Source of the DNA: an uncultured Verrucomicrobiota bacterium
Lineage (GTDB): Bacteria; Verrucomicrobiota; Verrucomicrobiia; Limisphaerales; UBA9464
Reading direction: 5' to 3'
Assembly (NCBI GenBank): GCA_903916195.1
Contig: CAIWVP010000125.1
Coordinates: 1 to 32,772 of the forward strand
Length of the DNA stretch: 32,772 nucleotides
The translations under genes and the position numbers were made by a program. Positions within the stretch are counted from its first letter, which is position 1; each line of letters starts with the position of its first letter. The notes under the pieces were generated by a model. It worked only from the letters and a program-made list of their open reading frames with translations. It ran no database searches and had not been told where the DNA came from. Shown in pieces: positions 29,234 through 32,772 of the stretch.

Positions 29234-29680
29234 ATGAAACTCCAGCCCCTCCTCTGCGCCGCGCTCCTCGCCGCGTGCGCTTCCATCGCCATGCCCAAAG
29301 CCGCCGCCCAAGACACCAAACCCTCCAAGGCCGCGAAAGCGGGCAAGAAATCCGAGAGCAAGAAGGCCAAGGCCGGGAAGCTCCAGCACGTGGTCGCTTT
29401 CAAGTTCAAGGACACCGCGAGCAAGGACGACGTGAAGAAGGTCGAGGAGGCGTTCCGCGCGCTGAAGACCAAGATCCCGCAGGTCCAAAAGCTCGCCTGG
29501 GGCCTGAACAACAGTCCTGAAGGACTGAACAAGGGCTGCACCCACGGATGGATCCTCACCTTCAACTCCGAGGAGGACCGCAACGCCTACCTCGTGCATC
29601 CGGACCACAAGGAATTCGGCACCCTCGTGAAGCCGCTGATCGCGGACGTGTTCGTGCTCGATTTCTGGGCGAAGGATTGA
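29234..29680 (+). CDS. Dabb-domain (stress-responsive alpha/beta barrel) putative lipoprotein
   Basis: A 148-residue protein. Residues 1-25 are an export signal (MKLQPLLCAALLAACASIA), with a lipobox-like LAAC at 12-15 that would make Cys15 the lipidation site; cleavage by signal peptidase I after AAA (residues 23-25) is the alternative. A Lys/Ala/Ser-rich linker (~26-50) leads to a ferredoxin-like Dabb domain at ~50-147: LQHVVAFKFKDTASKDDVK, LAWGLNNSPEG, and YLVHPDHKEFGTLVKPLIAD, which carries the typical HPxH motif. Dabb proteins form small dimeric barrels; in bacteria their substrates are mostly unknown. An exported version is notable, since many Dabb proteins are cytosolic. It faces the Nudix gene tail to tail. 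Confidence 0.85.
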   Translation: MKLQPLLCAALLAACASIAMPKAAAQDTKPSKAAKAGKKSESKKAKAGKLQHVVAFKFKDTASKDDVKKVEEAFRALKTKIPQVQKLAWGLNNSPEGLNKGCTHGWILTFNSEEDRNAYLVHPDHKEFGTLVKPLIADVFVLDFWAKD

Positions 29681-29698
29681 GGTCCGCCGCCGGCCGGG

Positions 29699-30223
29699 TC
29701 AGGCCTCGACCGTCACGCGAGCCAGAAGTTCGGCCAAGCGGTCGATGAGTGGCTGCTGCGTGAACTTCATCCGCTCGCGGGCCGCGGGCACCGTGAAGAA
29801 CGCCGCGCGGTCGATCTCCGGCCAGGTCGACCAACGGCCGGAGCCGGGCGGCCATTCGATGTCGACGGTGTTGCTCTGGATCGGGCAGCCGTCCTCCCAA
29901 TCGCCGGAGAACGCCCAAGCGTGGACGGTCTTGCCGCCTTTCTGTCGGATCGACCCGAGCTCGATGAACGGGCCGGAAGGCTCGATACCGACCTCTTCCT
30001 GGAATTCGCGGATGGCGGCCTCGAGCAGTTGTTCGCCGGGCTCGACCTCGCCCTTCGGGATGGTCCAGACGTCGTGCTCCTTGTTCGGGAACCAGGGTCC
30101 GCCGGGACGCGCGATGAACACCTGCAGTTCGCCGTCCATCTGCCGGTACATCAACAGGCCGGCGCTCACCCGCGAACGGCGGGTGGAGGATCGGTTGTCA
30201 GGTCTGGCAAGTTTCGGAGGCAC
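29699..30223 (-). CDS. Nudix hydrolase
   Basis: A 174-residue protein from GTG 30223. The Nudix box is exact: G58 x5 E64 x7 REFQEEVGI (72-80), preceded by WTIPKGEVEPGE. Early residues SAGLLMYRQMDGELQVFIAR and the NKEHDVW segment fit the MutT/Ap4A hydrolase-like group, which remove nucleoside diphosphate linked to another moiety with Mg. The short basic N-terminus (LARPDNRSSTRRSR) is likely disordered. The frame is open up to 30355; the internal GTG is chosen because the extra residues look like shadow sequence. It overlaps no other gene and ends 18 nt from the Dabb gene. Confidence 0.9.
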   Translation of the reverse strand: MPPKLARPDNRSSTRRSRVSAGLLMYRQMDGELQVFIARPGGPWFPNKEHDVWTIPKGEVEPGEQLLEAAIREFQEEVGIEPSGPFIELGSIRQKGGKTVHAWAFSGDWEDGCPIQSNTVDIEWPPGSGRWSTWPEIDRAAFFTVPAARERMKFTQQPLIDRLAELLARVTVEA

Positions 30224-30351
30224 GGTCGGGCCCGGAGCCACCGGACGACGTGCGCGACCGGTGGAGCCGAGGCTGTACGTTTGTAAGGGATCGGTGACGC
30301 CGAGGCAACGAAAGTCTCGGCGGAATCCAGGGCCCGCATCGGCAAACGCGG

Positions 30352-31107
30352 TCACTGCTTCAGGATGCGCGGCCGCTGCGACGGCGCGGAGGGGTTCTCC
30401 AGCTTCTGCGCCTGTCCCGGCTTGAGGAAGAGCGGGCCGTTGAGCAGGGCCGCACCGACGAAGACCCGTGCCGCCTTCTCCGCCATGAGCAAGGTCGCCA
30501 GCACCGCCTCCGGTGTGGCGCCGAGCGCGATGATCCCGCGGTTCTGGAGGGTGATCAACCGCGGCACGCGGACCGAACCGCGGCGCTGGTTGAGCGTCAC
30601 CCGGCCGCGGATCTCCCGCGCCAACGGGCTTCCCGGATCGGCGTACGGCACGAAGACGGACGCGGCCCCGGTGTGGTTCACCTGGTCGGGGAACATGCGC
30701 TGCTCCGAGAACGTCTCCGCCATCGGGGAGCAGAGCACCTGCAGGCAGGCCGCGGGAGCACAGTACGCCACGTAGCAGATGCCTTCGACCTGTTGCAACC
30801 AGGCGTGGAACGCCGCTTCACGGCTGGGCCGCCGGGCGGATTTGTCGACCCGGGCGTCCATCAGCGTCGCATCCAGCTCAGCGCTGTCGACGAGCGGCAT
30901 GTCGAGCAGTTCGAGGATCTTGGAGGCGCGGCACTCGACGATCTCGTCGGCCGACAGCGTGGACATCTGCGACCCGCTGGCCTTCACCAAGAAGCGGTCG
31001 CCGTCCAGATGTGCCGAGACGTTGCCCTCGTTCAGGTCGACCAGACCGCGATCGGCGCGGCCGATCTCATGGGCCAGCCAGAGCAGTCGTTCCAATGGCT
31101 CGCTCAT
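30352..31107 (-). CDS. class II aldolase/adducin-fold protein lacking the zinc-binding histidines
   Basis: A 251-residue protein of the class II aldolase fold. Conserved fold parts are present: DLNEGNVSAHLDGDRFLVKA (25-43), close to the phosphate-site NxGNxS motif, SREAAFHAWL with Glu97 where FucA has Glu73, and the C-terminal ALGATPEAVLATLLMAEKA. The metal site is missing. Where fuculose aldolase has HNH/HTH (His92, His94), this protein reads AYCAPA (Tyr115-Cys116-Ala117). Where it has the third His in QHHG, this reads QNRG (Asn189-Arg190). No His lies between residues 101 and 145. It is probably not an aldolase; a binding or regulatory role is my inference. It follows gatB by 59 nt on the same strand. 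Confidence 0.82.
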   Translation of the reverse strand: MSEPLERLLWLAHEIGRADRGLVDLNEGNVSAHLDGDRFLVKASGSQMSTLSADEIVECRASKILELLDMPLVDSAELDATLMDARVDKSARRPSREAAFHAWLQQVEGICYVAYCAPAACLQVLCSPMAETFSEQRMFPDQVNHTGAASVFVPYADPGSPLAREIRGRVTLNQRRGSVRVPRLITLQNRGIIALGATPEAVLATLLMAEKAARVFVGAALLNGPLFLKPGQAQKLENPSAPSQRPRILKQ

Positions 31108-31166
31108 GTGTCCTTTGGTCCCACCGTTCGCATCGCGTCGCAACAAGCCCCCGACATGGGGTCCGG

Positions 31167-32600
31167 TCAGGCGCGGAGCCTGCGCTCCAGCACCTCTCCG
31201 GCGATGCCGGGGTTGGCCTTGCCCTTGGACAGCTTCATCAACTGGCCCTTGAGGAAGTTCAGCGCGGCCGCTTTGCCGGCGCGGAAATCTGCCGCCGGCC
31301 CGGGGTTCGCCGCGATGACCTCGTCGGCCATGCGCTCGATCGCGCCGCTGTCGCTCATCTGCGCGAGCCCCTTCTGTTCGACGATCGCCGCCGGCGAACC
31401 GCCGTCCGCGAACAGGTCCGAGAAGACCTGCTGCGCGATCGGGTGGCTGATCTTCCCGGAATCGACGAGCGCGACCAACTCGCGCAGCGCCGCCGGTGTG
31501 AATTTGATGTCGGCCACCGTCGTGGACGATCCGGCGAGCTTCGCGGAGAGGTCGTTGATGACCCAGTTCGCCACGGCCTTCGGGTTCGCGGAGCCCGTCG
31601 CCGCGGCCTCGAAGAGATCGCCGAGCGCCACATTGTCCTTGAGCACCTCCGCGACGCCCGGCGGCAGGCCGTGCTCGCGGATGAACCGCTGCTTGCGGGC
31701 CAGCGGCAGCTCCTGCACGCGGGCCCGCACCTCCGCCAACCACCCGTCGGTCGGCTCGAAAGGCATCAGGTCCGGTTCCGGGAGATAGCGGTAATCGTGC
31801 GCGTCCTCCTTGGAGCGCATCGGCTCGGTGATGCCGGCGACGTCGTCCCAACGGCGCGTCTCCTGCCGCAGCTTCTCGCCGCGCGAGACGGCGGCGACCT
31901 GTCGGGGGATTTCGTGTTCCAGGGCGCGGCGCGCGCCGGAGAACGAGTTCATGTTCTTGATCTCGATCTTCGCCCCGAGGGTCGTCTCCCCCTTGGGCCG
32001 CACGGAGATGTTCACGTCGCAGCGGACCATGCCCTTCTCCATGTCGCAGTCGGAGATGCCGCCGCGGACGAGCACGTCCCGGAGCGCGTTGAGGTAGGCG
32101 TAGGCCATGTCCGCGCTGGAGATGTCGGGCTCGGAGACGATCTCCAGCAGCGGCACGCCGGCGCGGTTGAAGTCGACGCCGCTGTGGCGGTCGAAGTGGC
32201 TGTTCTTGCCGACATCCTCCTCGAGATGCGCGCGGGTGATGCGGACGCAGGCGATGCCGCCGGGCGCGTCCTTGAACTCGAACTCCAACCGGCCGCCCTG
32301 CGTGCTGGGCCGGTCGTACTGGGTGACCTGGTAGTTCTTGGCCGAATCGGGGTAGAAGTAGTTCTTCCGGTCGAACTTCGCGTGGCGCGGGATCTCGCAG
32401 CCGAGCAGGTAGCCGGTGAGGACGGTCAGCTTGAGGGCCTCCTCGTTGGCCACGGGCAGGACGCCCGGCAGCCCGAGGCAGACAGGGCACACGTTGGTGT
32501 TGGGGTCCGACCCGAAGGCGTTCGCGCAGCCGCACCACATCTTCGACCTCGTCTTGAGCTGGACGTGCGTCTCCAGGCCGATGACCGCTTCGTATTCCAT
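31167..32600 (-). CDS. gatB: Asp-tRNA(Asn)/Glu-tRNA(Gln) amidotransferase subunit B
   Basis: A 477-residue GatB of standard length. It starts MEYEAVIGLETHVQL, has the zinc Cys set C23-x-C25 and C38-x2-C41 (WCGC, VCPVC), the KNYFYPDSAKNYQVTQYD segment, and SDCDMEKGMVRCDVNISV. The C-terminal YqeY/tail domain (about 330-475) carries ANWVINDLSAKL and FLKGQLMKLSKGKANP. With GatA and GatC it amidates misacylated Glu-tRNA(Gln) or Asp-tRNA(Asn), so this organism probably uses the indirect route for one of these tRNAs. gatA and gatC are not in the window; the amidase at 5737 has a signal peptide and is not the partner. The aldolase-fold gene follows. Confidence 0.97.
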   Translation of the reverse strand: MEYEAVIGLETHVQLKTRSKMWCGCANAFGSDPNTNVCPVCLGLPGVLPVANEEALKLTVLTGYLLGCEIPRHAKFDRKNYFYPDSAKNYQVTQYDRPSTQGGRLEFEFKDAPGGIACVRITRAHLEEDVGKNSHFDRHSGVDFNRAGVPLLEIVSEPDISSADMAYAYLNALRDVLVRGGISDCDMEKGMVRCDVNISVRPKGETTLGAKIEIKNMNSFSGARRALEHEIPRQVAAVSRGEKLRQETRRWDDVAGITEPMRSKEDAHDYRYLPEPDLMPFEPTDGWLAEVRARVQELPLARKQRFIREHGLPPGVAEVLKDNVALGDLFEAAATGSANPKAVANWVINDLSAKLAGSSTTVADIKFTPAALRELVALVDSGKISHPIAQQVFSDLFADGGSPAAIVEQKGLAQMSDSGAIERMADEVIAANPGPAADFRAGKAAALNFLKGQLMKLSKGKANPGIAGEVLERRLRA

Positions 32601-32649
32601 GTCGGACCGTGGTTGTGCCAGACGGGAGAGAGGGGCGGAACAACAAACC

Positions 32650-32682
32650 GGGCCCGAGGACCTGGAGTCAGGTCCAAGGCCC
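32650..32682 (-). terminator. hairpin with T-rich tail upstream of gatB
   Basis: A 7-bp stem (32658-32664 with 32669-32675, loop GAGT) is extended by a 5-bp stem (32650-32654 with 32678-32682) across a small internal loop. For minus-strand transcription it is followed by GGTTTGTTGTT. It would end the transcript of the gene entering from the right edge, before gatB. Confidence 0.55.
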
Positions 32683-32727
32683 GGCGTTCGATGTCCGACC
32701 TTCGATGTCCGGCGTGCGCCGGCGCCG

Positions 32728-32772
32728 TCAGGGCGAGACCGCCCTGAAGACGCGGATCACCGTCGGAGGCGA
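32728..32772 (-). CDS. possible C-terminal end of a minus-strand gene cut by the window edge
   Basis: The last 15 codons read SPPTVIRVFRAVSP and then TGA (32730-32728). The VFRAVSP ending resembles the terminal FFR/FYR-type strand of secreted Verrucomicrobiota proteins, such as VFYRISAP at the end of the 13274-16306 protein. A terminator-like hairpin follows. Fourteen residues are too few for certainty. Confidence 0.3.
   Translation of the reverse strand, partial: SPPTVIRVFRAVSP

What the first reader, a model, noticed from the sequence alone, without database searches (positions are those of the whole stretch)
30352..31107. Aldolase-fold protein behind gatB has lost all three zinc histidines
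The NxGNxS-like region and Glu97 are kept, but the HxH and third His are Tyr-x-Ala and Arg. The fold is retained while metal chemistry is gone, and the gene follows gatB closely. A neofunctionalised binding protein or regulator linked to tRNA-dependent amidation or growth is conceivable.
Basis: partly seen in the sequence, partly recalled or inferred. Interest (0 to 1): 0.55.

Follow-up and report, generated by a model that had tools for sequence, protein, structure and literature searches.

The report
Metal-less sugar aldolase behind gatB
A bacterial sugar-splitting enzyme appears to have left its sugar pathway, settled behind a gene for tRNA amidation, and lost its zinc site while evolution kept the rest of the protein intact, much as animal adducin lost its own.

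Summary
The 251-aa protein at 30352-31107 (-) has the L-fuculose-1-phosphate aldolase fold (model pLDDT 91; best PDB match 2opi, Z 25.5). All three zinc histidines are gone (Y115, A117, R190); E97 is kept. It is not a local mutation. All 8 genomes of the genus have lost the site, although the first His survives in 4 of 8. Relatives with full HxH...NHG are the rule: 103 of 114 class-wide matches. Intact relatives often sit with fucose/rhamnose genes, whereas in the window's family the gene lies 7-70 nt behind gatB in three genera. Inside that gatB-linked group the site was lost at least four times (a single loss is rejected, p 0.0002), yet intact members keep the same position. Purifying selection is as strong as on gatB (dN/dS 0.04-0.16). 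Of 72 conserved columns, the only three replaced in every genus member are two zinc ligands and Glu142. Best reading: an orphaned fucose/rhamnose aldolase that has become a selected, metal-free pseudoenzyme, parallel to adducin. Its partner, and any role in amidation, remain undemonstrated. New variant of a known kind.

The parts
30352..31107 (-). Metal-less class II aldolase-fold protein, 251 aa
30817..30819 (-). Codon of E97 (catalytic-Glu column), kept
   Evidence: alignment
30763..30765 (-). Codon of Y115, column of the first zinc His
30757..30759 (-). Codon of A117, column of the second zinc His; A or S in all 8 genus members
30682..30684 (-). Codon of Q142; Glu in 37 of 38 intact relatives, Gln in 8 of 8 genus members
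30538..30540 (-). Codon of R190, column of the third zinc His; R or T in all 8 genus members
31108..31166 (-). 59-nt gatB-aldolase gap; no consensus promoter or terminator found in 29600-32772
31167..32600 (-). gatB, 477 aa, upstream in the probable operon
   Evidence: Pfam GatB_N 356 bits, GatB_Yqey 150 bits
29699..30355 (-). NUDIX hydrolase; its longest ORF starts in a GTGA overlap with the aldolase stop; neighbour in this genus only

Best explanation
This is a pseudoenzyme descended from a zinc-dependent L-fuculose-1-phosphate / L-rhamnulose-1-phosphate-type aldolase. In an ancestor within this Verrucomicrobiota family the gene came to lie directly behind gatB, away from the fucose/rhamnose genes (shown by comparison). 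Once the pathway's isomerase was gone from these genomes and another intact aldolase (the RhaD-SDR fusion) was present, the zinc site was free to be lost (inferred). It was lost independently at least four times (shown), while the rest of the protein stayed under strong purifying selection (shown). The likely mechanism is that the folded, probably tetrameric, protein works without metal chemistry as a binding module, the route taken by adducin. The oligomeric state and any partner are inferred, not shown.
For: Fold: AF2 model pLDDT 91.2, pTM 0.89; best PDB match FucA 2opi, Z 25.5, rmsd 1.9, 199 aligned. Loss of the site: 8 of 8 in the genus and 3 of 5 in genus g7, against 103 intact HHH of 114 class-wide matches. 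Independent losses: minimum 4 changes on a tree built without the active-site columns; one clade of losers rejected, p-AU 0.00018. Selection: dN/dS (NG86) 0.157, 0.038, 0.038, 0.133 and 0.089 in five genus pairs; gatB in the same pairs 0.120, 0.056, 0.058, 0.077 and 0.074. Specificity: of 72 columns conserved in intact relatives, the only ones replaced in all 8 genus members are 117, 142 and 190. Pathway context: 30 of 40 order/class loci have a fucI, isomerase-like, kinase, RhaD-SDR or FucP gene within 5 kb, and none of those 30 has an altered site. Pathway loss: no FucI in 50 family genomes; the 541-aa isomerase-like protein matched 4 of 50, three strongly, none in the genus; rhamnulokinase matches in the genus only 45-52 bits, against 300-504 bits in genomes with a clear one. 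Backup aldolase: an intact RhaD-SDR (HMH, QHG) in the window's own genome. Precedent: adducin (PMC12599920, abstract and passages).
Against: No partner, ligand, expression or oligomer data exist. dS is saturated in the more distant pairs. dN/dS shows selection on the protein, not what the protein does. Two genes besides gatB (NUDIX, Dabb) also stay near in this genus, so adjacency may be partly inertia. Four of 8 genus members keep the first His.
Confidence: 0.62

Rival explanations
1. It is still an enzyme. R190 and Y115 take over the electrophile role of zinc, or another metal site has formed, and it catalyses a new reaction on a phosphorylated substrate.
For: E27-G28-S31, S95 and H101 are invariant in the genus, and N29, G45 and E97 persist in most members. 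The superfamily includes other chemistries, such as pyruvic oxime dioxygenase (8ix6, Z 22.1). C121 is Cys in 8 of 8 genus members and Val in 27 of 38 intact relatives.
Against: The ligand columns differ between genus members (Y/H, A/S, R/T), E97 is T in two and D in one, and G45 and N29 are lost in two, so no replacement constellation is shared. C116, C121 and C126 also occur together in the intact relative L014.
Confidence: 0.2
2. The gene is decaying. Relaxed selection after pathway loss removed the metal site, and the ORF persists only because it is co-transcribed with gatB.
For: The gene is absent from many family genomes (22 of 50 hold it). Losses are repeated and all four fall in the gatB-linked lineage, which lacks the pathway isomerase.
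Against: dN/dS of 0.04-0.16 is similar to that of gatB, including 0.038 in the pair with the most erased site. No inner stops in the 21 near-full-length family matches. 42 of 72 conserved columns are kept in all 8 genus members.
Confidence: 0.1
3. It is a pseudo-subunit that joins an intact class II aldolase of the same cell in mixed oligomers and tunes it.
For: The window genome has an intact RhaD-SDR aldolase, and 6 of 8 genus members carry one or two further PF00596 proteins.
Against: The gene neighbourhood points to gatB, not to another aldolase. Two genus genomes show no other PF00596 protein (G001, 54% complete; G003, 89%).
Confidence: 0.08

Closest known systems
L-fuculose-1-phosphate aldolase (FucA; PDB 2opi, 1fua)
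   Same: Fold, similar length and the catalytic-Glu column; the best structural match.
   Different: None of the three zinc histidines is present.
Bifunctional rhamnulose-1-phosphate aldolase/SDR (TIGR02632 and PRK08324 models), N-terminal part
   Same: Closest NCBIfam sequence models, 26-43 bits, far below cut-offs.
   Different: No dehydrogenase domain, and the metal site is lost. The window genome has a genuine, intact member elsewhere.
Adducin / Hts aldolase domain (ALDO-DOM)
   Same: A class II aldolase fold that lost the His triad and became a protein-binding tetramer (PMC12599920, abstract and passages).
   Different: Metazoan and part of a larger protein that binds actin or Mud. The window protein is a free-standing bacterial protein nearer FucA-type aldolases; beta-adducin matches the family profile only at E 0.0002.
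Verrucomicrobial fucose/rhamnose pathway aldolase (AraD-like, microcompartment-linked in some)
   Same: Same phylum and the same kind of pathway as the intact relatives (PMC8857213, passages).
   Different: The window gene is outside any such cluster.

Membership tests
Zn-dependent class II sugar-phosphate aldolase (FucA/RhaD/AraD) | Class II aldolase fold | tested here: met
   PF00596 61.9 bits; Z 25.5 to 2opi
Zn-dependent class II sugar-phosphate aldolase (FucA/RhaD/AraD) | HxH plus third His zinc triad | tested here: not met
   Y115, A117, R190
Zn-dependent class II sugar-phosphate aldolase (FucA/RhaD/AraD) | Catalytic Glu | tested here: met
   E97 in the window protein; D or T in 3 of 8 genus members
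Zn-dependent class II sugar-phosphate aldolase (FucA/RhaD/AraD) | Aldolase activity | not testable with these tools
   Needs purified protein
Adducin | Aldolase fold without the His triad | tested here: met
Adducin | C-terminal neck and tail beyond the aldolase domain | tested here: not met
   251 aa in all, only PF00596 found; that adducin has neck and tail is recalled
Adducin | Tetramer that binds actin or Mud | not testable with these tools
   No complex prediction available
GatCAB-associated factor | Conserved co-location with gatB | tested here: met
   8 of 8 g1, 5 of 5 g7 with visible flank, 4 of 4 g3; 0 of 4 in g4/g6
GatCAB-associated factor | Physical or functional interaction with GatCAB | not testable with these tools
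   No data

The most novel reading that the evidence does not exclude
A bacterial counterpart of adducin. A sugar aldolase captured in the gatB transcription unit has been turned, several times in parallel, into a metal-free protein-binding tetramer that acts on the tRNA-dependent amidotransferase or its regulation, with intact enzyme and dead forms coexisting in one bacterial family in the same gene position.
Probability: 0.15. Interest if true: 0.68.

Novelty: new variant of a known kind. Interest (0 to 1): 0.45.

Why it matters
The adducin paper treats the switch from aldolase enzyme to binding domain as a metazoan event, and its searches found the domain only in metazoans (PMC12599920, passages). 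Here the same loss has happened repeatedly in close bacterial relatives: sister copies about 67% identical differ in the site, and the gene position is identical before and after. That makes the order of events (relocation, pathway loss, ligand loss, continued selection) directly testable.

Tried and rejected
Local mutation or sequencing error: rejected, since 8 of 8 genus genomes share the loss. A single ancient loss: rejected by the AU test. gatB linkage as the sole cause: rejected, because 6 gatB-linked homologues keep HHH (4 in g3, 2 in g7). A replacement Cys site (C116/C121/C126): not favoured, since intact L014 has the same cysteines. The 764-aa open frame running through gatB: composition effect; in the 93% identical G003 copy the frame is only 255 aa.

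Literature: no paper held 'class II aldolase' + adducin + pseudoenzyme or gatB + aldolase + operon + Verrucomicrobia, in the open PMC library only. PMC12599920: abstract, outline and passages read. PMC8857213: passages. PMC5216522: listing only. Residue names of the E. coli enzyme are recalled; the His and Glu columns come from the alignments.

Caveats on counts: the fucose-context count uses a script's thresholds; one of the 30 hits (L107, RhaD-SDR at 24% identity) is weak, and several loci stop at contig ends. The Fisher test on it (p 2e-5) ignores shared ancestry. The ORF-based neighbour table lost the aldolase in 30 loci and was replaced by tblastn. My first alignment used the wrong strand for minus-strand loci and was redone. 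In the trees I left out L023 (fragment) and most copies fetched twice from the same genome; L084 was but not. L022 has a long branch, so its place is unsure. The structure models used only the 27 and 26 sequences that tool admits; only the first was searched against the PDB.

Full report
What is there. The minus-strand ORF 30352-31107 encodes a 251-aa protein that matches only Aldolase_II in Pfam (61.9 bits). It starts 59 nt behind the gatB stop. No consensus promoter or terminator was found in 29600-32772, which is weak evidence in a GC-rich genome of unknown promoter type. The columns of the three zinc histidines hold Tyr115, Ala117 and Arg190, and the catalytic-Glu column holds Glu97. A predicted model (pLDDT 91.2, pTM 0.89) is closest to L-fuculose-1-phosphate aldolase, 2opi: Z 25.5, rmsd 1.9, 199 residues. 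Foldseek also puts 2opi first.

How widespread. All 8 genomes of the genus have the gene, with one copy each. In the family, 22 of 50 genomes have it. In an even draw of the class, 111 of 384 genomes have 114 matches at E 1e-25. I read all 114: 103 have His at all three positions and 11 do not. The 11 are five members of this genus in the draw, one of genus g7, one with a lost first His (f15) and four from family f71. Named relatives are Verrucomicrobiota MAGs, plus Agrococcus and Chloroflexota copies at 38-43%.

Pattern of loss. Within the genus, column 117 is Ala or Ser in 8 of 8 and column 190 is Arg (6) or Thr (2). Column 115 is His in 4 and Tyr in 4. Column 97 is Glu (5), Asp (1) or Thr (2). 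In genus g7, 3 of 5 readable copies have lost the site (HxQ/Y, QxQ/Q, QxN/T) and 2 of 5 are intact; a sixth copy is a contig-edge fragment. In g3, 4 of 4 are intact. On a tree built without the active-site columns, four changes is the minimum. Forcing all losers into one clade costs 82 log-likelihood units, p-AU 0.00018. One loser (L012) is 67% identical to its intact sister L009.

What was lost and kept. Of 72 columns that are at least 88% conserved among 38 intact sequences, 42 are kept in all 8 genus members. Exactly three are replaced in all 8: 117 and 190 (zinc ligands) and 142 (Glu in 37 of 38 intact, Gln in 8 of 8 here). The chance that at least two of three such columns would be zinc-ligand columns is 0.0035 under random choice, ignoring shared ancestry. 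In two members (G002, G004) N29, G45 and E97 are also changed, so little of the pocket remains. Nevertheless that pair has dN/dS 0.038 (gatB 0.058). The window pair G000/G003 has 0.157 (gatB 0.120), and other genus pairs have 0.038-0.133. dS is high in the three more distant pairs.

Where it came from. In 30 of 40 order/class loci a fucose/rhamnose gene (FucI, a 541-aa isomerase-like protein, an FGGY kinase nearest rhamnulokinase, a RhaD-SDR aldolase or a FucP-like symporter) lies within 5 kb of the aldolase (gene identities). None of those 30 has an altered site. Among 31 loci without such neighbours (21 from the window's family, the window included, and 10 others) 14 have an altered site. 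The two sets are not phylogenetically independent. In the window's family no genome of 50 has FucI. The 541-aa protein matched 4 of 50, three of them strongly (g5, g6) and one a 48-residue fragment. The 8 genus members show only 45-52-bit rhamnulokinase matches, against 300-504 bits in genomes that have a clear one. The window's genome does keep an intact RhaD-SDR aldolase (725 aa, 1068 bits to NF006189, with HMH and QHG motifs).

The gatB link. gatB is directly upstream in 8 of 8 g1, 5 of 5 g7 and 4 of 4 g3 loci, with gaps of 7-70 nt. It is not near in 4 of 4 g4/g6 loci, nor in the 56 other order/class, named and non-verrucomicrobial loci tested (some of these are the same genome twice). Among the genes downstream of the pair I found no match shared between genera. 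Intact copies share the position, so relocation came before the loss. The adjacency says nothing yet about amidation.

Interpretation. Shown: the fold (by prediction), the repeated loss of the metal site, purifying selection, the relocation, and the absence of the pathway isomerase from the genomes searched. Inferred: that the protein is a non-catalytic binding module, and that it is tetrameric like FucA and adducin. The precedent is adducin, whose aldolase domain lost the His triad and binds actin and Mud as a tetramer (PMC12599920, abstract and passages). It should not be filed as a working member of the enzyme family, because its metal triad is not met, and it is not adducin. It works, most likely, as adducin's domain does: by binding, not by catalysis. 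The main rival, a new chemistry, is weakened by the lack of any shared replacement constellation within the genus, but only an assay can close it.

Noticed in passing
L177:1076-3250 (window's genome, contig C105): Intact bifunctional rhamnulose-1-phosphate aldolase/SDR (1068 bits to NF006189) although no FucI was found in the genome and only weak rhamnulokinase matches.
   Followed up: partly
L076:5285-6907: 541-aa protein with only sub-threshold Pfam fucose-isomerase matches and no NCBIfam hit, next to intact aldolases in many Verrucomicrobiota: possibly an uncharacterised isomerase family.
   Followed up: partly
L127, L130, L229, L230: A second group of homologues (family f71) with altered triads (RxQ/Y, HxH/N, HxQ/H): further metal-site changes.
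   Followed up: partly
L084, L086-L089, L091 (Agrococcus); L085, L090 (Chloroflexota): Copies of the aldolase at 38-43% identity outside Verrucomicrobiota; the three put in the tree are nested among verrucomicrobial ones: possible horizontal transfer.
   Followed up: no
29699-30355 (-): NUDIX hydrolase whose longest ORF starts in a GTGA overlap with the aldolase stop; adjacent in the genus only, with a 322-aa opposite-strand gene inserted between them in G002 and G004.
   Followed up: partly
30352-31107 (-), C-terminus: All 8 genus members end in the same three residues LKQ after a conserved Arg (R245 column); intact relatives mostly end differently.
   Followed up: no
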